Below, in pieces: positions 10,961-29,706 of a stretch of 53,669 nucleotides of DNA. Both the position numbers and the translations under genes were made by a program. Source of the DNA: Pedosphaera sp. (GTDB taxonomy: Bacteria > Verrucomicrobiota > Verrucomicrobiia > Limisphaerales > F1-12-MAGs170); assembly GCA_009695275.1 (NCBI GenBank), contig SIBF01000003.1:1-53669 (forward strand), read 5' to 3'. How positions within the stretch are numbered: the stretch's first letter is position 1; every line of letters starts with the position of its first letter. The notes beneath the pieces were generated by a model. That model saw nothing but the letters and a program-made list of their open reading frames with translations. It ran no database searches and was not told the origin of the DNA.

Positions 10961-10973
10961 TGTTGTGTACCGA

Positions 10974-11753: not shown

Positions 11754-13300
11754 GGTCGCCTCTTTCAACCCACTCTCCGCGTGGCTTCGTCCTTGTCGCC
11801 ATTCTAGTCCTCGTCATGCTGATCTCGATGATTGCCATCAGTTTGTTATTCCGGCTCAGAGCCGAGGAGACTGCGGCCAGCGCCAGTGCCGGTTCCGAGC
11901 AAGCATGGTCGGTCGCGATGAGCGGTGTGCAGGAAGCCATGCGCATCGCTGCTGCGGCCACGCCTGGCTCGGATGATTGGCAGGACAAACCGGGCGCATT
12001 TCGCAGTCGCTTTGTTTTCGAGGACGGATCGGATCAATGGTTCTTCACGGTTTGGTCTCCAGCTTTCATTGATTCGCTCGCAGAAATCCGTTACGGACTC
12101 ACCGACGAAGCGAGCAAACTAAACCTGAATCATACCGACGCGACAAACATCACTCGCCTGCCCAATTTGCCCCAAGCGCTTATCACTTCGCTTCGCGGTG
12201 GCGCGGACACAAACACCACAAGTTTTCAGGAAGTGCCGTCAGTCTCGGATCCAAGTTCCATCTCGAGTTCCAATACCGTCCAGCAGGCAACATTCGCGAC
12301 GGTGGACGAACTCCTCCGCGTCCCCGGCTTCTCGCCAGCTTTGCTCTACGGCGAAGATGCCAATCAGAACTGGCAGCTCGATCTGAACGAAAATGACGGT
12401 GAAGACCGTTTCCCTTCAGATAACACCGACGGCAAACTGGATCTTGGCCTGCGCCAGTATCTCACCGTGGTCTCCTCGGAACCCAACGAATATAGCCGTG
12501 GCATCCCGAAGACGGATATCAATGACCCTCTCCACGCACTTCCCGCCATGGAACTCCCGCCCGCGCTCACAAACTTCATCGCCGCGCTGCGTGCAAACAA
12601 ACTCCAGATCGCCCACCCCGCCGATCTGCTCGAAGCCACGATCAAGGTGAAGGACGGCAAGGGCGCTGAAGTTGAAGTCCCATCAGGCGTGGGCAAGGAG
12701 GAGTTGCCGAAGGTCCTGGAGCTTTTCACGACAACTCACGAAGACCGGCAGCATGGCCTGATCAACATCAACACGGCTGGCGTGCCGGTGTTGGCGACCA
12801 TCCCAGGCATTGATGAAACCCTCGCTGAATCCATCCTATCGACACGCCGCAGCATTGGTCCGGAACGACGCACAACGATCGCGTGGCTCTATCAGGAAAG
12901 CGTCGTAGATGCGGCTCTTTTCAAACGCATCGCTCCACATCTTACCGCGCGCAGCTATCAATACAGTTTTCATGTCGTCGGCTACGGATTGCCAAGCGGC
13001 CGCTTTCGCGCGCTTGATGTGATTATCGATCTGTCCGGCGGCGAACCGCGCGTCAGTTATCTTCGTGATCTCACGCGGCTGGGAATTCCTTTTGCGCTCG
13101 AAGCCGAGCGCACAGAAGCGCCAGTCGCGCAAGCTGCCGCTCAAGGATTTCCAAAGCTCGCTTCCAGCCAGAGTTCAAAGGCAGGCAACCACTCGACGAT
13201 CAGGCGTCAGCTTGCGAAACGAAACATTACCTCCAATCTTCCAAGTCTCCGAAGGTTCAATCCCACCGACAATCGCGGACCGGAGGTGCCTCGTGGCTAG
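11750..13300 (+). CDS. gspK: Minor pseudopilin GspK
   Basis: 516 residues, somewhat longer than the usual 320-350. The N-terminus SPRGFVLVAILVLVMLISM is a prepilin-like helix lacking the +5 glutamate, as is characteristic of GspK, the tip subunit. It then shows DEASKLNLN, the GspK 'D...kiNLN' strand, and later NINTAGVPVLATIPGIDETLAESIL, a helix-hairpin-helix-like segment also typical of GspK. An Asp/Asn-rich insert (EDANQNWQLDLNENDGED) around 200-220 looks like a dockerin- or EF-hand-like calcium loop. The last 100 residues are basic and low in structure. The stop overlaps the GTG of gspL. Confidence 0.88.
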   Translation: MRSPLSTHSPRGFVLVAILVLVMLISMIAISLLFRLRAEETAASASAGSEQAWSVAMSGVQEAMRIAAAATPGSDDWQDKPGAFRSRFVFEDGSDQWFFTVWSPAFIDSLAEIRYGLTDEASKLNLNHTDATNITRLPNLPQALITSLRGGADTNTTSFQEVPSVSDPSSISSSNTVQQATFATVDELLRVPGFSPALLYGEDANQNWQLDLNENDGEDRFPSDNTDGKLDLGLRQYLTVVSSEPNEYSRGIPKTDINDPLHALPAMELPPALTNFIAALRANKLQIAHPADLLEATIKVKDGKGAEVEVPSGVGKEELPKVLELFTTTHEDRQHGLININTAGVPVLATIPGIDETLAESILSTRRSIGPERRTTIAWLYQESVVDAALFKRIAPHLTARSYQYSFHVVGYGLPSGRFRALDVIIDLSGGEPRVSYLRDLTRLGIPFALEAERTEAPVAQAAAQGFPKLASSQSSKAGNHSTIRRQLAKRNITSNLPSLRRFNPTDNRGPEVPRG

Positions 13301-15047
13301 CATTCCCTTGAAGACGCTCGTTGCATTCAAGCGACTCTCGAAACCGCGCCGACGCCGATCTCGACCTCCCGCACAAGTCACCGCGATCGACGTGGACGGT
13401 CAATTCTTGCGCCTGGTTCAAACCTCACCTCGTGGCAACCGCACCGTTGTCACTCGTCTTGAAGCTGCTCCACTGGAGCTGGCGGCTGGGGCTGATCGCA
13501 CCGATCCGAATGTGTTGGGACAGGCAATTGCAAAGACGCTCAACCGGCTCAACTTCAAACCCTCCTCTGTCGTCATGGGCGTCTCACGCGCCCAGGTTGT
13601 CCTTCGCACGCTGACGCTGCCCGTCATGGAAGACATCCATGAACTTGCTTCGATGGTTCATTTCCAGGTCGGACGAGATCTGCCGTTCCGCATGGATGAA
13701 GCTGTCATCGACTTCAAAGTGCGCCGGCAGATCAGCAGTCCACCGCCACGTTCTGATACGATCCCCGCCGAAGGCCCAGCCACCGCGGAATCCAAAGTTG
13801 AACCGGCTCACGTTCCAAAGCTCGAAGTTCTCGTAGCCGCCGTGAAGCGGGATGTGGTGGATTTCTACCTGCAGGTGACCGAAGCCGCCGGCCTCAAGCT
13901 TACCGCGCTCGGGCTGCTCTCCTACGCCAACGCCCGTTGCCTTGACGCCTGCAATGTTGCCGAAGGCGATCAGGCCGTCGCTCTTGTCTCCCTTCGTCCG
14001 GATGAGATGAACATCGACGTCATCGCGCAGCAGACGCTGTTGTTCAGCCGTGGCGCAAGCGTGAAGCCGTCGTCCGAGACGCCTCCCGCGGCACTGGACA
14101 CAACATTACTTCCGAAAGTGGAGCCAGCCGGTGCAGATGCCATCACTCCCCTGCCCTCCTCAGCACCTGAAAGCTTTGCCGACGCGGTGACCATTGAAGT
14201 CGTCCGCAGCATGCACAGCTACTCGGGCATGGAGCCGAACAATCCCGTGGCCAAGGTGGCCGTCACGGGCGCCACCGGTCACGAAACCGCTGTCGTCGAA
14301 GCCCTCGGAAAGCGGCTCAGTACTCCATGCAGCCTGCTCGATCTTGCAACGGCGCTCGATCTTCCATCAGACGCCCGCGAGCAAACTCCCGGCGGCATCG
14401 CTCCAATTGGGCTGGCTCTTGGTGTCAGCGATCCAAAGGGATTGCCGTTCGACTTCCTCAATCCAAAACGCCCGGCGGTGCAGCGCGACATGCGTCGCAT
14501 CCGCATTCTCGCCGGCATCGCGGCGGCGGCGGCGGTTTTGATTTTCACGTTGGCAATCCGCACATTTCTCATCAACCGCCATGAGAACATCCGGACTGAA
14601 CTCGCCGCCGAACTTGCCGAAGCCGAAAAGAAAAGCCCGCTCTACCGCCAGATGACCCGCCAGGCCACGGTGCATGACGGTTGGGTCAAGGGCGGGCGCG
14701 ATTGGCTGAAACAATTCGCTTATCTCAGCGCCATCCTTCCATCGAGCGAGGAAATTTATGTCACATCACTTGCCATCAGCGGTGCTGGAACGATTCGTCT
14801 CAATGTTCAGGCTCGAAGCGGCGAAACCCTTGCCAAGCTCGAAAAACAACTGAGCGCCGCCGGCTACGATGTGAAACCGCTTGCCATCACACCCGGCGCC
14901 GACCGTCATGGTTACGAGTTCAGATCCAGCGTGGAGTTCACCTCGCCGGAGAAGATGAAAATCGATCTGTCCAAGGTGAAAACTCCGCCACGTCTCGCCG
15001 ATGATGGCTCGCTGGATCCGGTCGTGAGAAGGGAGACGAGCCGATGA
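13293..15047 (+). CDS. gspL: GspL-like (PilM-PilN fused) platform protein
   Basis: 584 residues from GTG 13293. This start has a perfect GGAGGT six bases upstream (13282-13287) and overlaps the gspK stop by 8 bases; the open frame extends to 13065, but that part is only the shadow of gspK. Residues 30-470 read like a PilM/GspL actin-fold domain (AIDVDGQFLRLVQ, VVMGVSRAQVVLRTLTLP, FQVGRDLPF, ALGLLSYANARCLD). A membrane helix lies at about 405-425. The remainder resembles PilN (coiled coil, then W-L-x-x-L-S-x-x-L-P-S-x-x-x-x-V-T-S-L). GspL recruits GspE to the membrane. A low-complexity linker at about 145-185 and 260-290 is unusual. Confidence 0.82.
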   Translation: MASIPLKTLVAFKRLSKPRRRRSRPPAQVTAIDVDGQFLRLVQTSPRGNRTVVTRLEAAPLELAAGADRTDPNVLGQAIAKTLNRLNFKPSSVVMGVSRAQVVLRTLTLPVMEDIHELASMVHFQVGRDLPFRMDEAVIDFKVRRQISSPPPRSDTIPAEGPATAESKVEPAHVPKLEVLVAAVKRDVVDFYLQVTEAAGLKLTALGLLSYANARCLDACNVAEGDQAVALVSLRPDEMNIDVIAQQTLLFSRGASVKPSSETPPAALDTTLLPKVEPAGADAITPLPSSAPESFADAVTIEVVRSMHSYSGMEPNNPVAKVAVTGATGHETAVVEALGKRLSTPCSLLDLATALDLPSDAREQTPGGIAPIGLALGVSDPKGLPFDFLNPKRPAVQRDMRRIRILAGIAAAAAVLIFTLAIRTFLINRHENIRTELAAELAEAEKKSPLYRQMTRQATVHDGWVKGGRDWLKQFAYLSAILPSSEEIYVTSLAISGAGTIRLNVQARSGETLAKLEKQLSAAGYDVKPLAITPGADRHGYEFRSSVEFTSPEKMKIDLSKVKTPPRLADDGSLDPVVRRETSR

Positions 15048-16051
15048 ACCAACGCGAGAAAATCCTGGCGGCGGCTGTCGGAGGGATCGTTTTTATCTTC
15101 ATCGTCGGCTTCGGAATTCGCGGCGTAATTCTCAAGCCGGTTAGCGAGATCGACAAACGCAGCGCGGCCATTCGCGAGAAGCTCGACAAGATCAAAGCAG
15201 AGCGACGCGCCTACTTCGACGCGGAAGATCGGATGAAGGCTCACACCTTGCGAACGTTTGCCGATACTGTGGATCAGGCGAGTGCCCGGTCGGGTGAACT
15301 GCTGACCAAGCAAATCCTCGCGAGCGGATTGCAAGAGGCAGAGTTCACCCGCCTGCCCGTTGGCCCGCGCAAGCTGCGTGGGGCGCAGGAACTGGGCTGG
15401 AGCATTCAGGGCGATGGCCCGCTGGCGGATGTCACTGATCTGATATTCATGCTGCAAACCTCTCCTTACTTGCACCGGATCGAGAACCTCAGCGTTTCCA
15501 CCGGCGACGCACCCGGCATCGTGCGGGTTCGCTTCCGTTACCTGACACTTGTCCCGGAACCCGCTCCTGAAGTGCAACGCAAGGAGCTGGCTTCGACCCT
15601 CACCCTCGAAAGTGCGGAACGTCACATCTTCGACGGCATCGTGTCGCGCGACATCCTCCGGCCGTACATCAAACGCACACCGCCGCCGTCGCCCGAATCA
15701 ACGTCGAGTTCCAGCTCGCCTTCCACCAAAGCCGGCTCGGCGCAAGGGCCGGAAGCATTCCGCATCGTCTCTCTGTCCGAATGGCAGGGAGAGCCGGAGA
15801 TCCATGTGCGCGATCAAGCCCACCAGACAACCAAGCGCTACAAAGCCGGCGATCAACTGGCCGGCGGAACGGTCGTTTGTGTTGATTACCGGTCGATGCC
15901 GATGCCGGGTAACGAAGGCCTCCGCTCGGACAGCCGCGTGATCGTAAAAATCGGTTCCGAGTTCTTCGCCATCGAGCGCGGCAAAACACTTGCGGATAAG
16001 CGGAAGCTGACCTCGGAACAACTCCCGACGGAGCTGGCGAAGGTAAAGTGA
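15044..16051 (+). CDS. gspM: GspM/PilO-like protein with a GspC/PilP-like C-terminal part
   Basis: 335 residues, overlapping gspL by 4 bases (ATGA). A single N-terminal membrane helix (about 8-27) is followed by a coiled coil (about 33-75) and a ferredoxin-like region, as in GspM/PilO. After a serine/proline linker at about 205-225 comes a separate strand-rich part (FRIVSLSEWQGEPEIHV ... YKAGDQLAGGTVVCVDYR) that resembles the periplasmic HR/PilP domain of GspC, which binds the secretin. No gspC gene is present, so this tail may supply the missing link to GspD. That last point is inference. Confidence 0.7.
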   Translation: MNQREKILAAAVGGIVFIFIVGFGIRGVILKPVSEIDKRSAAIREKLDKIKAERRAYFDAEDRMKAHTLRTFADTVDQASARSGELLTKQILASGLQEAEFTRLPVGPRKLRGAQELGWSIQGDGPLADVTDLIFMLQTSPYLHRIENLSVSTGDAPGIVRVRFRYLTLVPEPAPEVQRKELASTLTLESAERHIFDGIVSRDILRPYIKRTPPPSPESTSSSSSPSTKAGSAQGPEAFRIVSLSEWQGEPEIHVRDQAHQTTKRYKAGDQLAGGTVVCVDYRSMPMPGNEGLRSDSRVIVKIGSEFFAIERGKTLADKRKLTSEQLPTELAKVK

Positions 16052-16111: not shown

Positions 16112-16183
16112 AAACATGATGTTGAAGCAAAGATCAGGCTGGCGCTCGTCGTCCCGGCAAAAATGAATTTTGAGGTACAAGTT

Positions 16184-19100
16184 ATGAAGAAGATCCAACC
16201 AAGCCGTATCCACCCATTTGAATTGGGGAGCACACGCGCCACCGCGTGTTTTCGTCGGCGCCTCGCCGACGAAACGAAGGTTCAAACCGACTCCCAGAAT
16301 GGTGATGCGCTCACGATTGAGACGTGGTGGGCGGGGCGCCCACCACAACACGCGAGGCGCGTCTGCTCCCCAATCCGTAGGGCCTTGCTGCCTTTAAGCA
16401 TCCTGCTCATCTGCTCTCTGTGGCTCGCCCCCGCTTCCGCCCAGGAAATCAAACCAGCCGTCACGGACCAACCCGCGCCTGTCCTGGCCCAAGCAACGCA
16501 GCCAAAACCCGCTGCCACTCCCACTCCATCCGCCGCAGCATCACCGGCACGCAACATCCGCTTCCAATTCGACGGCATTCCCTATTCGGATGTCATCGAA
16601 CGGTTCGCGCAGATGGCGGGCAAACCTTTGCTCGCTGAAACGAACATCGCCGGAAGCGTCACCTTCAACGACCCGAATCCCTACACCTACACCGAAGCGC
16701 TGGACACGTTGAACCTCATGCTTTCGATGAAGGGGCAGACGCTCGTTGAATCCGGCCATTACCTCCGGCTGGTCCCGCTGAAGCAACTGCCTTCGATGCC
16801 GCTTCGCATCATGCGCGGCATCGATCAGACCGGCGACACCCGCCCAAGCGAGGTCGTCACCGTGGTGCTCGATGTCAAAAATGTCGATACCAAGGACATC
16901 GTCGAGGCCATCACATCCATGCTCTCGAACGCGGGTTCAATCGCGCCCTTGTCGAAAGGGCGCGGCCTCATCATCACGGATCGGCTTGCGAACATTCAGC
17001 GCATCCGGACCCTGCTCACCACCATCGATACCGAGGCGGCCGTCGAGCGCCAGATGAAGACCTACACGCTGCTCCATTCATCGGGCGCGATCATCTCAGA
17101 TTTGCTCAACCGCACCTTCGGCCTCGCGACCGCTCCCAAGCGCACCAGCTACAATCCGAACTCCAAGGCGATGGAAACTCTGCCACCCGATCCCGCGGAC
17201 TATATCACCGCCGTCTATGACGATGCTTCGAGAACGCTCGTCCTCTTTGGCCCGAATGAACGAATCATTCTGGCCGAGGAACTGATCAACAAGTTCGAGC
17301 AAAAGGAAGGGCCGGGCGGTGATGTCCGGATTTATTATCCGCAAACGATCAAGGCCGAAGATCTCGCGAACGTCATCCGCCAGGCTGTTCCTGGTGTGGC
17401 CGCGCCGGGCGAAACCGCCGCCGCTGCCGCCACAAAAGCCCGCGTCATCGCGGACGCCTCACAGAACCGGCTCATCGTCGCCGCGCCCATTCCCGGCCAG
17501 CTCGAACAAATCGAACAGCTCATCAATCGCATCGACAAACCAGTTCATGGACAGGCGGGAGTATTCACGAACGTTCCGTTGCGGTCTCAAACGATTCAAC
17601 TCACGAAAGTCTTCCGTCCACGAGCCGCCGAAGTCTCCAACCTTGCCACGATTCTCACGCAAGCTCTCACGCGGCGCTCGCCCTCGGGCCAGATCAACAG
17701 CACCGCAAGCATCACCCACGATCCCGTCAGCCAAAGCGTCGTCGTCAGTGGCAGTCCGGGCGATCTCCAGATCGCCACCGACATCGTCGCCCAGCTCGAA
17801 ACCGGCACCACGCAGCCCACACCAATGCTGACGCGCTTCATCGACGTCGGCACCGCTGCCGAGGCGAAGCGGTTGCAGCCGCTGGTCGAGCAGCTTTACC
17901 GCAGCCAGGTCAGCAACGGCGGCCAGGGTCCGGTCGCTCATGCGAAGATTCTCTCCGATGGCGATGGTGGCAGGCTGATCGTCACCGCCAGCGAGGATCA
18001 CCTCACGCGCATCGAGAATCTCGTCATCCAACTGCGCTCGGATCGGGGCAAATCACTGTCGCGCCGACTTGAGATTATCTCCCTCAAAAACGCCCGCATC
18101 GAAACCGCGCTGACCAGCATTCAAAACCTGGTCACGGAGAAGATGAACGACCGGCGCTACACCGATGCGCCAAAGCCATCGTTAATTTCCGATCCGGCAA
18201 ACAACCGCCTGCTCGTCACAGCCACGGAAGAACAGATCACGGAGGTGCAGCAAGTCGTCACGGTCATTGATGTCGCTCCGCCGACCGCTCGCCGCGAAAT
18301 GCGTGTCATCGCACTCCGGGCGAAAACTGCGGCAGAAGTAATTGCGGTGGTCAACCCGCTGCTCGAACAAACCGCCGAACAACCCGCCAACCCCCAGTTC
18401 GCGCCGAAACTCCTGCCTGATCCGACGGGCAGGCAGATCATCGCGCTGGCGCTCCCTGCGGACTTCGAACGTGTCGAGAAACTCATCCAGCAGTTCGACA
18501 CCTCGCAGGCGACCTCCGCGCCACGCCAGTTCAAAGGCGTTGAGCTCTACAGCCGCAGCACCGCCGAACTCACGCCGCTCGTGACGCAGCTTTACACTGA
18601 ACAATTGCGCGGCCAGCCCGAGCCTGCCGGCGGCCCGGCCACCCTGCTCCCGGAGGCCAAAGGCAACCGCATCATGGTCAGCGGCGCCGAAAAGGAAATC
18701 GCGCGCGTCGAGGCGATCATTCGCCAGCTTGATCCCTCCGGGAAAAAGGGCGCGCGTGAGGAAACCCGGGTCATTCGCTTGAAGTCAGCGCTCGCTGCCG
18801 AACTCGCCGCCCTGGTCGAGAAGAGCCTCAACGCTCAATCCCAGCAGTTGAAGGTGCTCGTGGACGCGCGCAGCAACAGCCTCGTCGTCACCGGCGATTC
18901 CGCCGCGGTCGAGTCCGCTTCCGAAGTCGTACGACAACTCGATACCCGGCCCGACCTCCAGCCGCGCGAGATGCGGATCATTGAATTGAAACAAGGCGAC
19001 GCCACCAGCATCGCAACTCTCGCAAACAACCTCGCCACCGAACTCATCAAGGATCAGCGCGGCGCGGAATACACTCCGCAGACCAAAATCGTCGCCGACG

Positions 19101-22100
19101 CCACCTCGAACCGCCTCATCGTCAGCGGGCCGAAAGACGAATTGAAGACTGTGGCCGGCGTGGTCGAACAGCTTGATCAAGCGCCGGAGGCCACGGGCGG
19201 CGCCAAGGTGTTCAAGCTGATCAATGCCGATGCTGCGCAGATCATCGGCGTCGTCTCGAATGCGATGCTCAAGTTTGACGCGCGCAATCAGCCGATCCGC
19301 CGCGTATCGATCTCACACGATCGCGAATCCAACAGCATCGTTGTCTCCGGTTCGCGCGCTGACTTGAAGGACGCCGAGGGCATCATCCAGCGGCTCGACA
19401 ATGAGGGCATCGAGCCGGGTGCAACGGGCGGCAATGTCGGTCGTGCTCGTGAATTGAAAATCATTCCCGTGCGCGGCGATGATCCTGATGCGCTTGCCAC
19501 GCTCGCGCTGCGAGTGTTCACGGCGCAGAATGCCGGGCGCGCCGTCACCAACCTCGTAAGCATTACACCCGAGCCGAACGGCAAGCGTTTGATCGTACTT
19601 GCGCCCGCTGGCATTTTGCCGCAGGTCGAGACGGTTATCAGCACCCTCGACAGCGCCCCGGAACAGGGATCGCGCGAACTCCACGCCATTGAGTTGAAGA
19701 ACTCAACAACCGCTGAATTGCTGCCGAAGGTTCAACAGATTTACGGAGAGCAATCCCAGGGCAAGACGGTGAAGCCCGCGACGATCTACGCCGACGCCAG
19801 CCGCGCGCGCCTCATGGTCTATGGCACCAAGGAACAGTTGGCGACCATCGGACAGATCGTCGAGACCCTCCAAAGCCAGGCTCCCGTTCCACGCGAGGCA
19901 AAGTCGTTCGATTTCGGAAGGCTTGCCGAAGCTCAGCGCGTTCTGCCTCTCGCCCGCCAGCTTTACCGGGATCAAGTCACGAACAACCCGGCGCTCGGGC
20001 CTGCCGACGCGCAGTTCATCAGTGACGGCAAGACAGGCCGGCTCATCGTCAGCGCACGCGCAAATCAACTCAAAGCAATCGAGCTTGTCGTTTCGAACCT
20101 GTTGAGCACCGTCGCGACAAACCAACCCGGGAGGGAAACACGCACCTTTGAAGTCGGCAGTGCAAACGATGTGCAACGTCTCCAGCCCCTCATCCAGCAG
20201 CTCTACACCGATCAGTGGAAGGACAAGGCCGAGAACGATCCCGCCGATGCTCAGATCGTCGCGGATGCCAGAACTGGCCGGCTGATCGCCACCGGCAAGC
20301 CCGATCATCTCAAGCAGATCGAGATGATCCTGCAACAGCTCGGAGCCGGAAAAGCCAGACAGGAGGCGCGCGACACCCGCGTCTATGACCTCACTACCGC
20401 GAGCGCGGTTGAACTGGCAACGACGGTTCGCACTCTCTACCTCGAACAAGCGAAGGCTCGCTTCGGTGCGCAGCCGCCGGACACGCTCATTACTCCAGAC
20501 ACGGGCGGCAACCGCCTCATCGTCGTCGGCGACACCAATGAATTGCAGGCCATTGAAAGCATCGTTCAAAAGCTCGACAAGGTCAGCGCACAAAGCTCGA
20601 CCGCGCGCGTCTTCAAGCTAAAATCCGCCGAGCCGGACAAGGTGGCCGAGATCCTTTCCGCCGCGCTCGTTCGCTTCGACGCTTATGGACGTCCACAAAA
20701 GCGCGCCTCGGTTTCAGTGGATGCCAAGACCCGCACTCTCATCGTTACGGGCGACCCGAAAGAACTTCAAGGTGTCTCGGTTATCATCGACCAGCTTGAC
20801 CAGTCCCTCGGCTCCCAACCCGAGCGGAAGATGAAAGTCCTGCCGCTCAAGGCAGCCAAGGTTGCGGAACTTACTGCCAAAGTCCGCCAGCTCTACAATG
20901 ATCAGGTCAAGAGCCAGCCTACACTGGGCGTTGGAGATGCGCTGATCATGGAAGACGCGTCCAGCAGCCAGCTCATCCTGGCGGGCAGCGACGCTCAACT
21001 GTCACTCATCGAACGTATCGCGACAGATTTGCAGGCAGCTCAGGCCAACCAACCTCCGCGCGAAACAAAGTATTTTGAAGTGGGAAGCTCCGAGGAACTC
21101 ACACGCGTCCAACCGCTCGTTCAGCAACTCTACGCAGATCAATGGCGCGACCGTGGTGCCAGCGACCCGGCGGATGCCAGAATCATCCAGGACACCAAGA
21201 ACGCGCGGCTCATCGTCACTGCCCGGCCAGAGCACTTGAAGGCAATCGAGAAGATTCTTGCCGACGTGAACGCGCCGGCCACGAGCACCGAACCCCGCGA
21301 TACACGGGTTTATGACCTGAACACGACAGCGGCGGCGGAACTTGTGATCACGGTTCGCTCGCTCTACCTGGACCAGCTCAAGTCAAGGCAGGTGACCGCC
21401 GGCGGGCAGGCAAAAATTCTTCCAGACCTCGCGGCGAACCGGCTCGTTGTCTCGGGCAACACCAATGAACTCGCCGCTGTCGAAGCCATCATCACCAAGC
21501 TCGACCAGGTCAGCACGAAGACAGGCGGCGCACGCGTCTTCAAATTGAAAAACGCGGATGCCGAGCAGGTCGGGCGTGTCATCTCGACATCGCTTGTTCA
21601 AATCAACCAGAACGGCAGATCCATCCCCCGCGTGAGCGTCGGGCCGGACACGGCAAACAACCTGATTGTGGTCTCGGGTGATCCGAAAGATCTCCAGTCA
21701 GCGGCGGTGATCATCGAGCAGATGGACAGCATCGCCACGAAGCAACCGCGCCAGATGAAGATTGTTCCCCTCAAGTCAGGCGTGGCCACCGACGTCTCGA
21801 AGCGCGTTCGTCAGCTTTACGAAGATCAGCTCAAAGGCACGCCCGGCAGCGGTGCGCCCGATGCGCTCGTCCTGGGTGACGACGCCAGCAGCCGGTTGAT
21901 TCTCACCGCCAGCGAATCCCACATGAAGCTGATCGATGACATCGTGAACAAGCTTCAGGAATCCGGCGAAGGCCAGGGCCGGCAGTTGCGCGTGCTGACG
22001 CTCCAGAGGAACTCAGCCCGCCCGATCGCGACCATGCTCTCCCAGTTGTTTGCCCGGCAGGTCGCGAGCCAGGATCCGGCGGAGAGGCTGGTGGTGAGCG

Positions 22101-25100
22101 CTTCGGGCGATGACCGCACCATCGTCGTCGAAGCCGCGAACAAGACGCTGGAGAGCATCGATCAACTGGTGAAGCAACTGGATCAGGCTGAAGGCGACGG
22201 GCAGAGCGTGATTCAGACCGTTCGTCTGAAGAAGGGCAACGCCACCGACCTTGCCGACGCTGTCAATAAATCCATTGCCGCGCGCACGCCGCGCCTCCAG
22301 AGGATCAGCGTGACCGCCGTCGCCGGTGCCAACAGCCTTCTCATCAACGGACCGACCAACTCCGTGGATCAGGTGATGAAAATCGTCCAGGAACTCGACC
22401 AGGAAAGTACAGGCGGAGATATCGAAGTGCGTATCTACAAGTTGGAGAATGGAAACTTGAAAGGTGTGCAAGGGGTGCTCAATCAACTTCTTGAAAGCGT
22501 CACACGTTCGCTCGCAAACGCTGGAGGAGCCCACCGCGAACTGCCCGTCACAGTGACAATCGATGACCGCGCCAACAGCCTGATCATCGCCGCCACACCA
22601 GCCCACTTCAAAGTGGTCGAGAAGATACTGCCAACTCTCGACAAGGCGCCCGACCGTTCGGATCGTGATGTTCAATTCGTCTGGCTGCGCAAAGCCAAGG
22701 CGTTCGAAGTGGTCTCGAAAGTTGAAGCGGTCTTCAGCAACCGGCCCAGTGAAGAGCGGCCTGTGGTCGAGGCGGATTCGTCCAACAACTCCGTGACGAT
22801 CATCGCCCGTCGCGGCGACATAGCCCAGGTGCAGGATTTGATTTCACGCCTGGATGACACATCGAAAGACAGCAACATCCAGGTGCGACTCCGCCCGCTC
22901 GAGCGCGTCGCCGCCGAGCAAATGGCCAGAATGCTCCAGAGCATCTATCCACAAATGGCGAACGGACAGTTGCGCGTCGTGGAAAGGATCACACCGCCGA
23001 AAGCCGGCCAACCCGTCGCTCCTGCCGTTCAGCCACCGACTCCCCAGGCCGCACCGCAACCCTCCCCTGCCCCGCCGGCCGAGAAGAAAGAAGATGCGAA
23101 ACCCACGCCCGAGGTTGTCATCGCGGTGGACAAGGAAGCGAACTCCCTCATCCTCTCCGGCCCGGCGCAGGAACTGGACAACATCGATCGCATCATCAGT
23201 GATCTTTCGTTCAGTTTTTACGGCAATGAAGCGGAGTTCCGCCTGTTCCCGCTCAAGGAGGCCGATCCCGTCGCCGTCGCACGAACGTTGAGCGACTTGT
23301 TGAAGCAGGAGCCCGTTGCCGTTCCGCAGCAGCCCGGCCAGCCGCCACGCACCGTCACACCGCAGCATCGCATCACCGTCGTTTCCGAGCCACGTACCCG
23401 CAGCATCATTGTGCGTGCCCGTCCGACAGACTTCCCATTGATCGAATCGATCGTGAAGCAACTCGACGCAGGCGGCCAGACGGCTCAACTGGAATTCCGG
23501 CTCGTCCCGCTGACCAACGCTCCGCCGGGAAAAGTTCTTCCGCTCGTGCAGCAGATGGTCACGCAGCTTAACCTCGCCCGTCCTGGCGAACCTCTCACCG
23601 TTACCGTGGACCCTCGCACCCGTGGGTTGCTTGTGGTCGCCCGCGACACGTTGCTCACTCAGATCGAGAAGATGATTCACCAACTCGATTCACCGTCAGC
23701 TTACGTGGAGGCCGAGGTCATGGTGGTGGGATTGAAGAAGGCGAACGCCACCCAACTCGCGACCATCCTTCAAAACATGCTCAAGCCTGGTGTGCAGGGC
23801 GAATGGACGATCGACGCGCGTGAATTACAGGAGCAGGTACGACGCCTCAAGGTGCAGAATGATCAGGGCAAGGAAGTCCTGCTCGATCTCACCAAACCAA
23901 TCAAGATCGCAGCCGATCCAGTAACCGGGCAGGGCGGTGGCAACCGGCTCGTGTTGACATCCACATCCGACAACTTGAAAGCCCTTGCGGCAGTCGTCAC
24001 GATGATGGACACGGTTCCGATTCTTGAAGACGTGGTGGTGAAATTGATGCCGTTGAAATATGCCGACGCCGCGGCGCTCTCGCAGACACTTACAACCATC
24101 TTTACTCAAGGCAAACAGCTCGGCACCGGACCGGCGGGCGCAGGAGCCCAGCCGGATGGAGCTGCGGGCAAGGCACTCGTGAATCCGCTGAATGTCGCGG
24201 TGGATGCACGGTCAAACACACTCATTTTGAGTGGTCAGATCGAGACGATGAATCTGGCGCTTCGAGTGGTTGCCGACATTGACAAACCGATCGACCGCTT
24301 CGTAACGGAGGTAAGACTTTTCCGTCTCAAGCACGCCTCCGCCATCCGCCTTGTGCCATTGCTCCAAAGCGTCTTCGCCGAAGGTCCGCCCGTGCCGGGC
24401 ACCGAGGGCTTGAACACTCAAGTCACCCGGCTCCGAACCGTGAAAGACGTGGCCGCTTCCAAAACCACTGACACCGCCAAGAATCGCTCAGCGCTCGTGA
24501 TACAGGCGGATGATTTGTCGAACATCCTCATCGTCGCCGCCCGGAGCGATACGCTGCCACTGATTCAGGACGTCATTGATCAGCTCGACATTCCCGCCGC
24601 TTCCGGACTCGAAACGGTCCGCATCTATCCGCTCAACCATGCGGATCCGGCTTCGATCCAAAAAGTTCTCAGCGACATTTACACCAGCCCGCGCGCCACC
24701 GCGACGGTGCGAAATGAAGACAAGCCGGTCATCACCGTTGACGCCCGCACCAGCGCACTCGTGGTCGCGGGGAACAGCAAGAGCTTCGCGGTTATTGAAG
24801 GCTTGCTGCTACAGCTTGATCAAAAGCTCCCGTTCGAGCTGCGTGAAATCCGCATCATCCCGCTGGAAAATGCAGACGCGAATGTGATCGCAACGACAGT
24901 TCAAAAGCTGATGGATGCCCGCGTCACCCAACGCGCGTCCCTCAACCAGGGCACACCTGACACGCTAAAGGTCACGATTCTGGCCGACCCGAGAAGTAAC
25001 AGCCTGCTTGTCGCCGGCGGCCGCGAGAGCTTCGACATGGTGGAATCGCTCGCCAAACAGTTGGACAAGGCCGGCATGGCTTTGAGCGGACGCATCCGCT

Positions 25101-28100
25101 TGATCCCGGTGCAATTCGCGGACGCCCGGGTGCTCGCTGCCACGTTGACCACACTGTTCACCGAGCGCTACGCCGTCGCGCGCACGCCCGACATGCAGCG
25201 GACCAAGCCCATCGTCCTGGCAGATCCTCGAAGCAACAGTCTTCTGGTCACCGCAAATCAGGAGGACAACGGCGTGATCGACGATCTCTTGAAACGGCTC
25301 GACGCGAAGACCGACAACCCGGCGCTCACGCTGACGGTGGTTCCTCTCAAGCACAACGATGCCAGCAGGGCTGCAACGCTCATCGAGGGCATTTTTACCG
25401 CGCGCATGAAGGCACAGACGCTGCCCAACCAGACACCGCTGCCAAGCGAGCAGATCAAACTGGAGCCCGACTCCTTGAATAATGCGCTCATCATCTCCGC
25501 CAGCAAAGAGAACCTGGAGTTGATTCAAGTTCTCATTCAGAAGATCGACGTTGAGCCAGGCATCGAAGGTGGCGCGCTCCAAACTTTCACTCTCGAATTC
25601 GCCGACGCACAGCGAGTGGCGGGAATCTTGAACTCTCTTGTCCAGCAGGGGCTTTATCGTCCCGGTCTCATACCTGGGACACCAGTCAAAGGCACACCGC
25701 GTGACGCCCTGGCGATCAGCGTCGATCCTCGCAGCAACACATTGATTGTCAGTGCGAGCCCGGAAAACCTGGCGCTTGTTAAAGCTATCATCACCAAGCT
25801 CGACACGAAGGATTTCACAGCTTCAACAAATGTCCGGCTCTATCAGTTGAAAAAAGCCCGTGCCAGTTCTCTGGCAGCCACGCTTGAACAATTCTTCCGC
25901 GCCAAGCGTGCGGGTGATGCAGTCGTCGCAAATGCCGGTGACCGCGCCATTCCCGTGGGTGTGATTCCCGATGACCGGGTGAACACGTTGCTGGTTACGG
26001 GCAGCAAAGAGGCCTTCGACGTGATCGAGAACATCCTTCCGCAGCTCGATAGTGAAAGCGTTTTTGCGAGGATGAACTTCAAGGTGTTCCCGCTTAAGAA
26101 AGCGACGGCACGGGCGCTTCAAGGAGTGATCCAGCAGATCGTCGCCAACCGGCCGCCAAAGGTAAAAGGCGAGCCCGTGGATCCAATCACCGTCGTCGCT
26201 GACCAGTGGGTCAATGCCCTGCTCGTGGGCGCAAGCGTTGATGACATGGGCACGGTCGAATCGCTCATCGAACGGCTGGACAGCGAGCCCGCGGAAACCG
26301 GGATTGCGATTCACGTCTTTCCTCTGGCGAAGGGTGACGCCCGCCGTGTCGCGCAAACGATTCAAAGTCTTTTCCGCGAAAACACGACCGGAACTGGCAC
26401 GGCTGGGGCGGTTCTCCCAGTGACCGTCAGCGCGGACGAACGCATCAACGCCATCGTTGTCTCCTGCGGCGAGAATGACGCCAAGCGCATCGGCGAGCTG
26501 GTAAAGAAACTCGACACCGAGCAAGTGGCGCGGGTGAGCGAGATCAAAGTGTTTCCTCTCAAGTACGCCAGGGCGGAATCGCTCTCCTCGATCCTGAATA
26601 CGGCGCTGAACACCAAGCCAACGCCATTAAGCGAGCAGAGTCCCAATGCTCAATCCGTGCTCCAATTCATCTCGCACACGCAGGAAGGCAAGGAGTTGAT
26701 CTCCGCCGCCTTGAAGGAAGCCGTGCTGATCACGCCGGACGCGCGGATGAACTCTCTGATTGTTTCCGGACCGGTGGATTACATGGGAATGATCGACCAG
26801 ATCATCACGCGCCTTGATTTAAGTTCTCCACAGGAGGCCAAGATCAAGGTCTTCCCCCTGCAGAACGCCGACGCCAATCAAATGGCCCGCCTGTTGATGC
26901 AGCTCTTCCGCATGAGCCAGCTCCAGACGGCGGCGCAAACCGGCAACCAACGGTCCATTCAATACACGCTCGTTCGCTCCCGGCAGGATGAAGAAGGCGA
27001 ACCTCTGAAGGAAGAAGCCCTGGCCAGCGCCACTCTTGGAACCGCCGAACAGAACGCGCTGACCGTCACGGTGGATGCGCGCACGAACAGTTTGCTCGTC
27101 GGAGGCACGGAGCATTATGTGTCGCTCGTTTCTCAGGTCATTGAATCTCTCGATTCCACACCGGCCAATGAACGCCGCACCGAGGTCGTGCGGCTCAAAA
27201 ACTCGCAGGCTACGGAAGTAGCACTGGCCATCCGCACCTTCCTCGATCAGGAACGGCAAAAAGTCACTCAAATCCTCGGTGCTGAAGGGATCGGCACGAA
27301 GGAACAGGTTCTCGAACGGGAAGTTGCCGTCGTCGCGGAAACCGCCAGCAACACCTTGCTGGTTTCAGCGGACCCTCGTTACTTCGAGCAGGTCAAGGCG
27401 CTCATCGAGGAACTCGACCGTCCGCAAGCGCAGGTGCTCATCCAGGTGTTGCTCGCTGAAGTGACACTGGATGCGATGACCGATCTGGGCGTCGAGTGGA
27501 GTTACGCCGGCAAGAAGGGCGACGTGAGCTATGGGATCGGAACGGACTTTGGCGTCAAGGACGCATTGAAGTCGTTTGGTGGGTTCTCCAGCGCGGTGAG
27601 CGGGAGTGATTTTAACTTCCTCCTGCGTGCTTTGAAAAACGAGGGCCGCCTCGAAGTGTTGAGCCGCCCCGAGATCGTCACCGCCGACAACAAGCCCGCC
27701 AGCATCAATGTGGGGCAGCGTGTGCCGTTGATCACCGACAGCCGCGTCACGCCACAAAACGACACGATCAATTCCTTCCGCTACGAGGACGTTGGCATCA
27801 ATCTCACCGTCACGCCCAAGATCAGCCCGGACGGGTTTGTGAAAATGGAGATCAGCACCACCAACAGCAGCATCAGCAGCTCGACCGTCGAAATCAACAA
27901 ATCCGCCACCGTCCCGATCATCGCGCAGCGGCGCGCCACGACCACCGTCAGCGTGCAGAGCGGTCAGACGGTTGTCATCGGCGGATTGATTGAAACCGTG
28001 GATGACCGGCGCGTCCGGAAGTTTCCGGTCTTGGGAGAAATCCCCTACCTTGGCGCTCTCTTTCGCACCACCACCACCAGGCGCGACCGTAAAGAACTGA

Positions 28101-28369
28101 TCATTCTTCTGACACCACAGGTCGTGGCCGACTCGAGACAGCCGGAACATCAGCGCCCTGCTGGAGAGGGCACTTTGAAATATGACAAAGGCGCACGGGA
28201 TTTCGACAAAATTACCCGTGAACATCTGGACAACTCGGGAATCAAGGACGGAATGAAGAATGACCGCCTGCGCAAACAGATCCTCGCTCCACTCTATCCT
28301 TCCCCGACGCAACCAGACGCAAAGGGCAAGCCAGCGCCATCAGACGAGTCGAATCGAAAATCGCCCTGA
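16184..28369 (+). CDS. gspD: Giant GspD-type secretin with about 43 N-domain modules
   Basis: About 4,061 residues; ordinary GspD has 600-750. I choose ATG 16184 (GAGG 8 bases upstream) over ATG 16163. Residues then run: a basic leader enlarged by an inserted repeat; a hydrophobic signal core ending APASAQ; an N0-like (STN) domain from about 124; about 43 tandem Secretin_N (N1-like) modules of 75-110 residues; and one secretin pore domain (about 3751-3981: VLIQVLLAEVTLD, SRPEIVTADNKPASINVG, VPIIAQRRATTTVSVQSGQTVVIGGL, VPxLGxIPxLGxLF-like KFPVLGEIPYLGALF). Most modules carry D-x-R-x-N-x-L-x-V and I-x-x-L-D. Modules 15-18 and 19-22 form a tandem four-module repeat. A proline-rich insert lies in module 27. 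The frame is open for 12 kb without a defect. It should form the outer-membrane channel; what the extra modules do is unknown. Confidence 0.93.
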   Translation: MKKIQPSRIHPFELGSTRATACFRRRLADETKVQTDSQNGDALTIETWWAGRPPQHARRVCSPIRRALLPLSILLICSLWLAPASAQEIKPAVTDQPAPVLAQATQPKPAATPTPSAAASPARNIRFQFDGIPYSDVIERFAQMAGKPLLAETNIAGSVTFNDPNPYTYTEALDTLNLMLSMKGQTLVESGHYLRLVPLKQLPSMPLRIMRGIDQTGDTRPSEVVTVVLDVKNVDTKDIVEAITSMLSNAGSIAPLSKGRGLIITDRLANIQRIRTLLTTIDTEAAVERQMKTYTLLHSSGAIISDLLNRTFGLATAPKRTSYNPNSKAMETLPPDPADYITAVYDDASRTLVLFGPNERIILAEELINKFEQKEGPGGDVRIYYPQTIKAEDLANVIRQAVPGVAAPGETAAAAATKARVIADASQNRLIVAAPIPGQLEQIEQLINRIDKPVHGQAGVFTNVPLRSQTIQLTKVFRPRAAEVSNLATILTQALTRRSPSGQINSTASITHDPVSQSVVVSGSPGDLQIATDIVAQLETGTTQPTPMLTRFIDVGTAAEAKRLQPLVEQLYRSQVSNGGQGPVAHAKILSDGDGGRLIVTASEDHLTRIENLVIQLRSDRGKSLSRRLEIISLKNARIETALTSIQNLVTEKMNDRRYTDAPKPSLISDPANNRLLVTATEEQITEVQQVVTVIDVAPPTARREMRVIALRAKTAAEVIAVVNPLLEQTAEQPANPQFAPKLLPDPTGRQIIALALPADFERVEKLIQQFDTSQATSAPRQFKGVELYSRSTAELTPLVTQLYTEQLRGQPEPAGGPATLLPEAKGNRIMVSGAEKEIARVEAIIRQLDPSGKKGAREETRVIRLKSALAAELAALVEKSLNAQSQQLKVLVDARSNSLVVTGDSAAVESASEVVRQLDTRPDLQPREMRIIELKQGDATSIATLANNLATELIKDQRGAEYTPQTKIVADATSNRLIVSGPKDELKTVAGVVEQLDQAPEATGGAKVFKLINADAAQIIGVVSNAMLKFDARNQPIRRVSISHDRESNSIVVSGSRADLKDAEGIIQRLDNEGIEPGATGGNVGRARELKIIPVRGDDPDALATLALRVFTAQNAGRAVTNLVSITPEPNGKRLIVLAPAGILPQVETVISTLDSAPEQGSRELHAIELKNSTTAELLPKVQQIYGEQSQGKTVKPATIYADASRARLMVYGTKEQLATIGQIVETLQSQAPVPREAKSFDFGRLAEAQRVLPLARQLYRDQVTNNPALGPADAQFISDGKTGRLIVSARANQLKAIELVVSNLLSTVATNQPGRETRTFEVGSANDVQRLQPLIQQLYTDQWKDKAENDPADAQIVADARTGRLIATGKPDHLKQIEMILQQLGAGKARQEARDTRVYDLTTASAVELATTVRTLYLEQAKARFGAQPPDTLITPDTGGNRLIVVGDTNELQAIESIVQKLDKVSAQSSTARVFKLKSAEPDKVAEILSAALVRFDAYGRPQKRASVSVDAKTRTLIVTGDPKELQGVSVIIDQLDQSLGSQPERKMKVLPLKAAKVAELTAKVRQLYNDQVKSQPTLGVGDALIMEDASSSQLILAGSDAQLSLIERIATDLQAAQANQPPRETKYFEVGSSEELTRVQPLVQQLYADQWRDRGASDPADARIIQDTKNARLIVTARPEHLKAIEKILADVNAPATSTEPRDTRVYDLNTTAAAELVITVRSLYLDQLKSRQVTAGGQAKILPDLAANRLVVSGNTNELAAVEAIITKLDQVSTKTGGARVFKLKNADAEQVGRVISTSLVQINQNGRSIPRVSVGPDTANNLIVVSGDPKDLQSAAVIIEQMDSIATKQPRQMKIVPLKSGVATDVSKRVRQLYEDQLKGTPGSGAPDALVLGDDASSRLILTASESHMKLIDDIVNKLQESGEGQGRQLRVLTLQRNSARPIATMLSQLFARQVASQDPAERLVVSASGDDRTIVVEAANKTLESIDQLVKQLDQAEGDGQSVIQTVRLKKGNATDLADAVNKSIAARTPRLQRISVTAVAGANSLLINGPTNSVDQVMKIVQELDQESTGGDIEVRIYKLENGNLKGVQGVLNQLLESVTRSLANAGGAHRELPVTVTIDDRANSLIIAATPAHFKVVEKILPTLDKAPDRSDRDVQFVWLRKAKAFEVVSKVEAVFSNRPSEERPVVEADSSNNSVTIIARRGDIAQVQDLISRLDDTSKDSNIQVRLRPLERVAAEQMARMLQSIYPQMANGQLRVVERITPPKAGQPVAPAVQPPTPQAAPQPSPAPPAEKKEDAKPTPEVVIAVDKEANSLILSGPAQELDNIDRIISDLSFSFYGNEAEFRLFPLKEADPVAVARTLSDLLKQEPVAVPQQPGQPPRTVTPQHRITVVSEPRTRSIIVRARPTDFPLIESIVKQLDAGGQTAQLEFRLVPLTNAPPGKVLPLVQQMVTQLNLARPGEPLTVTVDPRTRGLLVVARDTLLTQIEKMIHQLDSPSAYVEAEVMVVGLKKANATQLATILQNMLKPGVQGEWTIDARELQEQVRRLKVQNDQGKEVLLDLTKPIKIAADPVTGQGGGNRLVLTSTSDNLKALAAVVTMMDTVPILEDVVVKLMPLKYADAAALSQTLTTIFTQGKQLGTGPAGAGAQPDGAAGKALVNPLNVAVDARSNTLILSGQIETMNLALRVVADIDKPIDRFVTEVRLFRLKHASAIRLVPLLQSVFAEGPPVPGTEGLNTQVTRLRTVKDVAASKTTDTAKNRSALVIQADDLSNILIVAARSDTLPLIQDVIDQLDIPAASGLETVRIYPLNHADPASIQKVLSDIYTSPRATATVRNEDKPVITVDARTSALVVAGNSKSFAVIEGLLLQLDQKLPFELREIRIIPLENADANVIATTVQKLMDARVTQRASLNQGTPDTLKVTILADPRSNSLLVAGGRESFDMVESLAKQLDKAGMALSGRIRLIPVQFADARVLAATLTTLFTERYAVARTPDMQRTKPIVLADPRSNSLLVTANQEDNGVIDDLLKRLDAKTDNPALTLTVVPLKHNDASRAATLIEGIFTARMKAQTLPNQTPLPSEQIKLEPDSLNNALIISASKENLELIQVLIQKIDVEPGIEGGALQTFTLEFADAQRVAGILNSLVQQGLYRPGLIPGTPVKGTPRDALAISVDPRSNTLIVSASPENLALVKAIITKLDTKDFTASTNVRLYQLKKARASSLAATLEQFFRAKRAGDAVVANAGDRAIPVGVIPDDRVNTLLVTGSKEAFDVIENILPQLDSESVFARMNFKVFPLKKATARALQGVIQQIVANRPPKVKGEPVDPITVVADQWVNALLVGASVDDMGTVESLIERLDSEPAETGIAIHVFPLAKGDARRVAQTIQSLFRENTTGTGTAGAVLPVTVSADERINAIVVSCGENDAKRIGELVKKLDTEQVARVSEIKVFPLKYARAESLSSILNTALNTKPTPLSEQSPNAQSVLQFISHTQEGKELISAALKEAVLITPDARMNSLIVSGPVDYMGMIDQIITRLDLSSPQEAKIKVFPLQNADANQMARLLMQLFRMSQLQTAAQTGNQRSIQYTLVRSRQDEEGEPLKEEALASATLGTAEQNALTVTVDARTNSLLVGGTEHYVSLVSQVIESLDSTPANERRTEVVRLKNSQATEVALAIRTFLDQERQKVTQILGAEGIGTKEQVLEREVAVVAETASNTLLVSADPRYFEQVKALIEELDRPQAQVLIQVLLAEVTLDAMTDLGVEWSYAGKKGDVSYGIGTDFGVKDALKSFGGFSSAVSGSDFNFLLRALKNEGRLEVLSRPEIVTADNKPASINVGQRVPLITDSRVTPQNDTINSFRYEDVGINLTVTPKISPDGFVKMEISTTNSSISSSTVEINKSATVPIIAQRRATTTVSVQSGQTVVIGGLIETVDDRRVRKFPVLGEIPYLGALFRTTTTRRDRKELIILLTPQVVADSRQPEHQRPAGEGTLKYDKGARDFDKITREHLDNSGIKDGMKNDRLRKQILAPLYPSPTQPDAKGKPAPSDESNRKSP
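16222..16374. repeat. 153-bp palindromic element inside the gspD leader
   Basis: The ends are 19-base inverted repeats with one mismatch (ATTGGGGAGCACACGCGCC at 16222-16240 against its complement at 16356-16374). Inside are two further hairpins (GTCGGCGCCTCGCCGAC and GTGGTGGGCGGGGCGCCCACCAC-like). The length is exactly 51 codons, so it adds about 51 residues ahead of the signal core without shifting the frame. It looks like a member of a dispersed repeat family; no target-site duplication is evident. Confidence 0.8.
20129..21976 (+). repeat. Tandem duplication of a four-module block within gspD
   Basis: Block A (20129-21055, 309 codons) and block B (21056-21976, 307 codons) align module by module: RETRTFEVGS/RETKYFEVGS; RDTRVYDLTT/RDTRVYDLNT; ARVFKLKSAE/ARVFKLKNAD; MKVLPLKAAK/MKIVPLKSGV, and QLYTDQWKD.../QLYADQWRD... 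Earlier modules (5, 11, 13, 14) are further relatives of the same types, so the array grew by segmental duplication. The copies have diverged, which argues against an assembly artefact. Confidence 0.85.
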
Positions 28370-29115: not shown

Positions 29116-29706
29116 ATGTTAAGGAATGGGCCGGAATACACCCTCAGCTTATCCGTGCAATCCGCGAAATCCGAGGTCAATTCCCTGAAGCGTCGCTCTG
29201 GTGCTGTCGTCAGTGTGATTTTTCTGGTTTTGCTGATGGTGCTGACTCATGGCTGCGCTTCACGCCAGAGAGGCAACGTGAGCCGTCCGTCTGGCGGCGG
29301 AGGCGGTGGCATCGGTGCCCTCCACCTCTTCGGAGCTCCCCTGGCACTCGACTTCGATGACAAGCCGGGGTCGGATGGATTTGCGGTCACAATTTACGCA
29401 AGCAACGGTACTCAGGCGCGCGGACTTCAGATCAGGACTGGCACGATGGAAGTTCTGATGTTCGATGGCACCCCACACGCACAAGGATCGACGGCGCCGG
29501 AGCCGAGCCGAACCTGGACGTTCACCGCAAAGCAACTGGACGCTTATGCTCACAAATACGCGATTGGAATTGGCTACCGGCTGACCCTGTCCTGGGCGGA
29601 GACGCTTCCAACACGAGATCGCATCACAGTCCTGGCCCGCTACACTTCGCCAAAAGGAGAGACGATTTCATCAGGCCCGAGCACGATAGCGGTCCTGGCG
29701 AGATAG
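29116..29706 (+). CDS. Lipoprotein of unknown function
   Basis: A hydrophobic signal followed by the lipobox LTHGC (SVIFLVLLMVLTHGCAS) shows a lipid-anchored exported protein. A glycine run follows, then a compact domain (LFGAPLALDFDDKPGSDGFAV ... GLQIRTGTMEVLMFDG ... TWTFTAKQLDAY ... GYRLTLSW ... ITVLARYTSPKG). Similar lipoproteins with a 'D.DG.PG.DGf.v.iy' opening are, as far as I recall, common in Planctomycetes and Verrucomicrobia and have no known role. The start is uncertain: the frame is open from 29011, but that part is repeat DNA (including a CCACGGATTT...AATCCGAGG type repeat at about 29100-29182). ATG 29116 still gives a long leader, so a non-ATG start nearer 29185 is possible. Confidence 0.6.
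   Translation: MLRNGPEYTLSLSVQSAKSEVNSLKRRSGAVVSVIFLVLLMVLTHGCASRQRGNVSRPSGGGGGGIGALHLFGAPLALDFDDKPGSDGFAVTIYASNGTQARGLQIRTGTMEVLMFDGTPHAQGSTAPEPSRTWTFTAKQLDAYAHKYAIGIGYRLTLSWAETLPTRDRITVLARYTSPKGETISSGPSTIAVLAR

What the first reader, a model, noticed from the sequence alone, without database searches (positions are those of the whole stretch)
16184..28369. A T2SS secretin of about 4,060 residues with roughly 43 N-domain modules
Seen: one uninterrupted 12.2-kb frame with signal peptide, N0-like domain, about 43 hand-counted N1-like modules (most with D-x-R-x-N-x-L-x-V and I-x-x-L-D), then a single ordinary secretin pore. Known: GspD has N0 and three N modules that stack as periplasmic rings. 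Inference: if each module forms a ring, the channel would be far taller than any usual periplasm, so either the modules form a long tube or filament across an unusual envelope, or most do not stack as rings. The rest of the T2SS cluster is conventional, so the machine itself seems to have been changed at the secretin. This is my best candidate for an undescribed system.
Basis: partly seen in the sequence, partly recalled or inferred. Interest (0 to 1): 0.95.

Follow-up and report, generated by a model that had tools for sequence, protein, structure and literature searches.

The report
Giant forty-three-module T2SS secretin
A bacterial gene encodes a predicted outer-membrane secretion gate about six times longer than usual, with 43 diverged copies of a ring-building module whose order is shared by many relatives; the copies would likely stack into an exceptionally long tube across the cell envelope.

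Summary
One open frame (16163/16184-28369) encodes a GspD secretin with an N0-like domain, 43 N1-like modules and one secretin pore. It is no assembly artefact: modules are about 24% identical to each other, so there is no DNA repeat array to collapse, and a search reports 254 giant relatives, some on contigs of 0.4-1.9 Mb. In 120 proteins counted by profile (window = 42, its first module being too weak) numbers run 38-55, mode 42; 57 more have 20-50. Modules are position-specific: module i matches module i of relatives (68% identity, 24% to other positions; 10 order inversions in 4631 pairs). dN/dS is below 1 in every module scored. Length differs mainly in the middle, often by four-module blocks. 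The gene sits in a conserved cluster, GspG-H-I-J-K-L-M-D-lipoprotein. In its order 98 of 320 genomes (its own included) have it; in a phylum-wide draw, 0 of 386 others. A 45-module protein is named Phycisphaeraceae. Best reading: a T2SS secretin whose periplasmic part is a long stack of distinct rings, likely 0.1 micrometre or more. Ring stacking is not shown: predicted inter-module geometry was unreliable and coevolution tests inconclusive. No paper on such secretins was found in six searches.

The parts
16163..28369 (+). giant gspD, 4068 aa (4061 aa from ATG 16184)
16370..16441 (+). signal-peptide-like stretch, residues 63-86 (PIRRALLPLSILLICSLWLAPASA)
   Evidence: read from the sequence; no predictor was run. 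Relatives begin with comparable stretches
16586..16762 (+). N0-like domain, residues 135-193
   Evidence: PF21305 23.5 bits, below cut-off 27; phmmer to GspD/XcpQ N-domain chains 4e9j and 5mp2, residues 136-286, E about 3e-7
16859..17038 (+). first N1-like module, residues 226-285
   Evidence: PF03958 36.7 bits over cut-off
17147..27418 (+). array of 42 further N1-like modules, residues 322-3745
   Evidence: module profile, 42 hits at E<1e-3; linkers median 10 aa
19925..22186 (+). lineage-variable zone, array modules 13-22, where four-module blocks are gained or lost
22220..27418 (+). pore-side block, array modules 23-42; 26, 27 and 35-42 kept in all 14 loci mapped
27629..28126 (+). secretin pore domain, residues 3816-3981
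   Evidence: PF00263; model matches solved GspD pores
705..2375 (+). GspE ATPase
   Evidence: PF00437, PF05157; TIGR02533 615 bits, cut-off 630
2438..3664 (+). GspF
   Evidence: PF00482 over cut-off; TIGR02120 below cut-off
9270..9794 (+). GspG major pseudopilin
   Evidence: PF08334; TIGR01710 over cut-off
9810..10508 (+). GspH minor pseudopilin
   Evidence: PF12019 over cut-off
10505..10960 (+). GspI-like minor pseudopilin (by position only; no family match)
10965..11753 (+). GspJ-like minor pseudopilin
   Evidence: PF11612 22.3 bits, below cut-off 28; TIGR01711 below cut-off
11750..13300 (+). GspK-like minor pseudopilin, 516 aa
   Evidence: HHH_3 over cut-off, PF03934 below; NF037980 below cut-off
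13323..15047 (+). GspL/PilM-like inner-membrane protein
   Evidence: PF11104 over cut-off
15044..16051 (+). GspM-position protein with a conserved C-terminal domain
   Evidence: no family match; 18 sequences aligned, one of them a split gene; co-occurs with the giant gene
29197..29706 (+). predicted outer-membrane lipoprotein, candidate secretin partner
   Evidence: homologue at 23 of 26 giant loci; lipobox cysteine invariant in 22 aligned sequences

Best explanation
This gene encodes a T2SS secretin (GspD) with one N0-like domain, 43 N1-like modules in fixed order and one C-terminal pore, and its modules would likely stack as rings into a periplasmic tube of about 0.1 micrometre or more. Shown: the module count, the positional orthology, dN/dS below 1 and the gene neighbourhood. 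Predicted: the ring-building fold of the 16 modules modelled. Inferred: about 15 subunits assemble through the pore domain as in solved GspD; each module position forms its own ring; N0 and the first modules meet the inner-membrane platform (GspL and the GspM-position protein); the pseudopilus pushes folded substrates up the sleeve; and the downstream lipoprotein pilots or braces the secretin. Length is likely set by adding or removing modules, often in blocks of four, in the middle of the stack, while both docking ends stay fixed. The likely reason is an unusually wide periplasm or paryphoplasm.
Against: Relative placement of modules was not confident in either model (pTM 0.37, 0.26). Within-position covariation between neighbouring modules was no stronger than between modules 2-5 or 2-8 apart. 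No coordinates were available to build a ring. The pseudopilins are not scaled up several-fold (GspG 174 aa against a 134-position profile; GspK, 516 aa against 307, is the longest). A tube this long exceeds every secretin I know of. The periplasm evidence is electron microscopy of strain Ellin514, of a kind whose interpretation is debated (PMC5287468, abstract in the listing). I did not test whether Ellin514 carries the gene.
Confidence: 0.5

Rival explanations
1. Most modules do not form closed rings: only the pore-proximal few stack, and the rest is a bendable string of beads that tethers the pore to the inner membrane across a variable gap.
For: Low confidence of inter-module geometry; no neighbour-specific covariation. 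N0-N2 of ordinary secretins are described as flexible or disordered (PMC5646246 and PMC6882859, passages).
Against: A mere tether should tolerate module exchange, loss and drifting linkers. Here order and identity of modules are kept over 119 proteins, linkers stay near 10 aa and dN/dS is below 1 in every module scored.
Confidence: 0.28
2. The modules do form rings, but the stack is compact or sideways (tilted, nested or folded back), giving a broad vestibule or cage that holds many substrates rather than a long tube.
For: Avoids a 0.1 micrometre channel; some modules have long loop insertions (residues 2235-2341, 2514-2610, 2711-2802, 3455-3545, 3555-3658) that could mediate lateral contacts.
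Against: Short linkers; two to three consecutive modules align to the ordinary N1-N2-N3 order of GspD, although with rmsd of 8 A or more over three modules.
Confidence: 0.12
3. The modules are substrate-binding sites: each holds a different exoprotein or glycan, and their number follows the size of the secretome.
For: Secretin N domains are reported to interact with secreted substrates (PMC5646246, passage); modules differ from each other but are conserved by position, as distinct binding sites would be.
Confidence: 0.09
4. Assembly artefact or decaying repeat gene.
For: The window is one contig of a 66%-complete genome in 232 contigs; two relatives are reported with one stop inside.
Against: No DNA-level tandem repeat array; relatives on contigs of 0.4-1.9 Mb and one protein seen on 13 contigs; dN/dS 0.09-0.20.
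Confidence: 0.01

Closest known systems
GspD/PulD/XcpQ, T2SS secretin (solved structures 5wq7, 6hcg, 5wln)
   Same: Pore domain, N0-like domain, N1-type modules, T2SS neighbourhood; best solved-structure match by sequence (5wq7, E 2e-49) and by fold.
   Different: 43 N1-type modules instead of three; 4061 aa against 624-657 aa for the five longest GspD chains; no separate GspC gene found; partner lipoprotein finds no solved pilotin by profile search.
Thermus thermophilus PilQ (type IV pilus/DNA uptake secretin)
   Same: Extra N rings stacked in the periplasm, linked by its authors to a wide periplasm (PMC5745081, passages).
   Different: Six rings and 757 residues; a pilus secretin, not among T2SS genes.
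Secretins with 5-12 N1-type modules, some named Planctomycetota or Pirellulales (P0228, P0213); P0207 and P0210, with 12, carry no name
   Same: Same domain order with extra modules and a signal-peptide-like start.
   Different: 1.2-1.5 kaa; separated from the giants by one branch in the pore-region tree (support 98, midpoint root, long branches flagged).
Other secretins of the same genome (frames of 377, 463, 579 and 994 aa)
   Same: PF00263 pore.
   Different: No large array: Secretin_N matches are one on C134, one on C167 and three on C187; three more lie on C131, where no Secretin match was found.

Membership tests
GspD / T2SS secretin | C-terminal secretin pore domain | tested here: met
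   PF00263 172 bits, cut-off 27.5; fold match to GspD pores
GspD / T2SS secretin | GspD equivalog profile | tested here: met
   TIGR02517 1193 bits, cut-off 351; the total is swollen by repeated modules (23 stretches), the best stretch 3620-3985 covers profile 189-594 of 600
GspD / T2SS secretin | N0 domain at the N-terminus | tested here: inconclusive
   PF21305 23.5 bits against cut-off 27; phmmer to GspD/XcpQ N-domain chains, E about 3e-7
GspD / T2SS secretin | three N1-type modules | tested here: not met
   43 modules of the right family, not three, with the right predicted fold in the 16 modelled: hence a variant
GspD / T2SS secretin | oligomeric outer-membrane channel, N modules as stacked rings | not testable with these tools
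   no multimer prediction or coordinates
T2SS | ATPase, platform and pseudopilin genes in one cluster | tested here: met
   GspE, F, G, H and GspL/PilM by Pfam over cut-off; GspJ and K below cut-off; GspI and M by position; neighbourhood recurs in relatives
T2SS | GspC connector | tested here: inconclusive
   no GspC match among the window proteins scanned; the C-terminal domain of the GspM-position protein may stand in for it, but its profile finds no such structure
T2SS pilotin | outer-membrane lipoprotein that targets the secretin | tested here: inconclusive
   conserved neighbour with lipobox; no similarity to a solved pilotin; function untested

The most novel reading that the evidence does not exclude
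A secretin forms a continuous protein tube of 40 or more chemically distinct stacked rings, well over 6 MDa and 0.1-0.2 micrometre long, which carries folded proteins across a paryphoplasm-like wide periplasm; its length is encoded by the number of modules and re-set in evolution by inserting four-ring blocks, making it a molecular ruler for envelope width in Verrucomicrobiota and Planctomycetota.
Probability: 0.35. Interest if true: 0.96.

Novelty: new variant of a known kind. Interest (0 to 1): 0.88.

Why it matters
In the papers I saw, six periplasmic rings already make a secretin one of the largest (PMC5745081, 2017). A family with 20-55 ordered, individually conserved modules would turn envelope width in these bacteria, long argued over as compartmentalisation, into something that gene length may predict, and gives a natural series of lengths for testing how a pseudopilus works over distance. 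If it stacks, it would be among the largest protein-export channels known. Annotation hides it: where named at all, it is a 'hypothetical protein', a 'secretin N-terminal domain-containing protein' or a plain GspD.

Tried and rejected
Assembly artefact: rejected. Decay by drift: rejected by dN/dS; pair L086/L087 was saturated (dS near 3) and left out.

Coevolution as a test of stacking: two versions of within-position direct-coupling analysis. First: top adjacent-module z 8.0, controls (offsets 2-5) up to 8.8. Second, with more proteins: 7.5 against 8.2 at offset 2 and 8.9 at offset 7. Inconclusive.

Structure prediction did not fix inter-module geometry. An alignment for a different segment (A2) began inside a module and was not folded.

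Identity of the GspM-position protein and of the lipoprotein: no credible match among solved structures and none in Pfam.

The frame 28369-29007 overlaps the gspD stop (TGATG) but has no family match and was set aside; I think it spurious.

Literature: no paper on giant or multi-N1 secretins in the listings (one search was on the cell plan). The library holds only openly licensed PMC papers. Beyond listings I saw passages of six papers; in a seventh, PMC6532946, the words sought did not occur.

Counts: the module histogram covers the window's protein and 119 others of the 254 that one search reports; one search adds 57 of the 120 listed of 536. Module counts shift by about one between runs (for example L079 39, 38), because E-values depend on the set searched. 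Module mapping printed 14 of 20 loci. The neighbourhood count uses 26 loci: lipoprotein not found at L079, L084 and L039 (locus ends at the gene); GspM not found at L040 (contig edge), L083 and L099 (in those two genomes it matches on another contig). GspE-F is not always upstream: inverted at L092, downstream of the lipoprotein at L083.

Full report
OBSERVATION. The frame at 16163/16184-28369 is open over its whole length. Pfam finds 38 Secretin_N stretches, one Secretin domain and a sub-threshold N0 domain. A profile trained on the protein itself gives 42 modules at E<1e-3, and a Pfam match over its cut-off at 16859-17038 adds the first one: 43 in all. 38 of the genome's 46 Secretin_N matches are in this gene. 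The genome also has four other Secretin matches, in frames of 377, 463, 579 and 994 aa, so the giant is one secretin among several. Codon positions have GC 0.64, 0.43 and 0.72, as coding DNA does.

NOT AN ARTEFACT. There is no DNA-level repeat array. Modules of the protein share on average 24% identity with each other. The search for homologous proteins, which only looks at proteins of 0.55-1.75 times the query length, reports 254 relatives; the 120 listed, the window's own among them, have 3661-5121 aa, lie on contigs up to 1.86 Mb, and several are seen on more than one contig. A second search with a 25-module relative reports 536, 120 listed.

A FAMILY WITH A GRADED SIZE SERIES. In 120 proteins (the window's, counted as 42 by this profile, and 119 others) 38-55 modules were found, mode 42 (57 of 120), next 46 (17 of 120). 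Fifty-seven more proteins have 20-50. Loci from the same order show 25, 28, 28, 29, 30, 30, 32, 33, 35 and 39 modules, beside others with 40-46. Proteins with a signal-peptide-like start and 5-12 modules, some named Planctomycetota, are the shorter kin. One protein named Phycisphaeraceae has 45 modules (P0300). In a pore-region tree of 92 rows the 15 rows with 5-12 modules are one side of a branch with support 98, and the size classes are clustered; the root is midpoint only, and the program warns of long branches that meet.

POSITIONAL ORTHOLOGY. Against 119 relatives P0001 has 4631 reciprocal-best module pairs of 4998 possible, with 10 order inversions; mean identity is 0.68 at the same position and 0.24 elsewhere. 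Array modules 18-21 have partners in only 28-39 of 119 proteins; every other position has partners in 102-119. In this zone P0003 carries four extra modules, DNA similarities recur at 927 bases (four modules), and modules 4-24 resemble each other most at offset four (0.31 against 0.23-0.27 at the other offsets up to 12). Not all differences are multiples of four: counts of 39, 41, 43, 44, 45, 48, 49, 51 and 55 also occur. In 14 mapped loci of 25-46 modules, positions 1, 2, 26, 27 and 35-42 are always kept in order. So the two ends are fixed and the middle varies, as a length-setting spacer would.

SELECTION AND LINKERS. Four unsaturated gene pairs give whole-gene dN/dS of about 0.09, 0.14, 0.20 and 0.15; every module that could be scored is below 1 (highest 0.52). 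For the array alone the ratio is about 0.09-0.19 and for the pore region about 0.03-0.19, the array being the faster in three pairs and the slower in one. Linkers between module matches have median 10 residues (5768 linkers; 5th-95th percentile 8-20).

NEIGHBOURHOOD AND DISTRIBUTION. GspE, F, G, H and GspL/PilM are identified by Pfam over cut-off, GspJ and K below it, GspI and M by position. At 26 giant loci GspM precedes GspD at 23 and a lipoprotein follows at 23; the misses are told under Tried and rejected. GspF and GspG are separated in the window by about 5.6 kb of unrelated genes. With a query of the last modules and pore, 98 of 320 genomes of the window's order (its own included; 36 of 118 genera) match at E<=1e-60, against 0 of 386 other genomes of a phylum-wide draw, one of them of the same order. 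GspM is found in 106 of the same 320; 94 have both, 4 the secretin alone, 12 GspM alone, 210 neither; eleven of those 12 genomes are under 90% complete. In genomes at least 90% complete with at most 5% contamination both counts are 53 of 154. Frames under 2000 aa (26 of 102 rows) were not all checked for contig ends.

HOW IT LIKELY WORKS. The best reading is a normal T2SS whose outer-membrane channel has been lengthened on the periplasmic side. Thermus PilQ, with six N rings, is 350 A long, is called one of the largest such systems, and its rings are said to span most of a wide periplasm (PMC5745081, passages). Taking 25-40 A a ring (upper value from that paper's length less a recalled 100 A for the pore; lower value recalled), 43 rings would be 110-170 nm. 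Fifteen copies (the chain number of most GspD entries) at 4061 aa make about 6.7 MDa. A wide outer compartment has been described in strain Ellin514 of Verrucomicrobia subdivision 3 by electron microscopy (PMC2647929, passages); whether that strain carries the gene was not tested. Other steps (N0 to inner membrane contact, role of the lipoprotein, pseudopilus action) rest on the T2SS in general (PMC6882859, passages) and are inferred.

AGAINST. Covariation between neighbouring modules is no greater than between distant ones. The pseudopilins are not scaled up several-fold. A flexible tether or a compact vestibule remains possible.

PRIOR WORK. No paper on such secretins appeared in the listings. 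Giant genes are noted as frequent in several PVC-superphylum lineages (PMC12057145 and PMC11573180, passages); the word secretin does not occur in the main text of either.

Noticed in passing
window 3665-9269: GspF and GspG are separated by an Ig/FGE-sulfatase protein split over two overlapping frames (4690-6138, 6135-6647), a Y1-type transposase-like frame (6690-7526) and a He_PIG protein (7881-8861). A gap of similar size lies at L096 (2979-9613), while most other loci that show both genes have F and G close together.
   Followed up: partly
window 16251-16273: A perfect 10-base inverted repeat with a 3-base loop sits inside the 5' end of the giant frame, in a ~60 aa extension that most relatives printed lack; it may be a REP-like insertion.
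   Followed up: no
P0300; P0212, P0221: Planctomycetota-named giants: a 4277 aa Phycisphaeraceae protein with 45 modules, and partial Planctomycetota proteins with 17 modules each.
   Followed up: partly
window 15044-16051: The GspM-position protein has a Pro-rich linker and a conserved C-terminal domain with no family match; it could stand in for the missing GspC.
   Followed up: partly
window 29197-29706: An unnamed lipoprotein family follows the giant secretin at 23 of 26 loci.
   Followed up: partly
L045 (G395:C22), G317:C5; L089: Two relatives are reported with one stop codon inside, and at L089 the GspM homologue is split in two frames.
   Followed up: no
L083 (G288), L099 (G572): The giant secretin is not next to GspM here; GspM matches lie on other contigs of the same genomes.
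   Followed up: no
G290: The only same-genus genome among the 320 (82% complete) has no giant-secretin match and no GspM match.
   Followed up: no
P0001 whole protein: Pfam also reports KH-domain families (PF24471, PF23248, PF14611) in the array, probably cross-matches from the similar fold.
   Followed up: no
window 30496-53655: Downstream genes look unrelated: Nramp with an iron-dependent repressor, aquaporin with an FGGY kinase, a gyrase-B-like protein, a GH39 and a copper amine oxidase.
   Followed up: no
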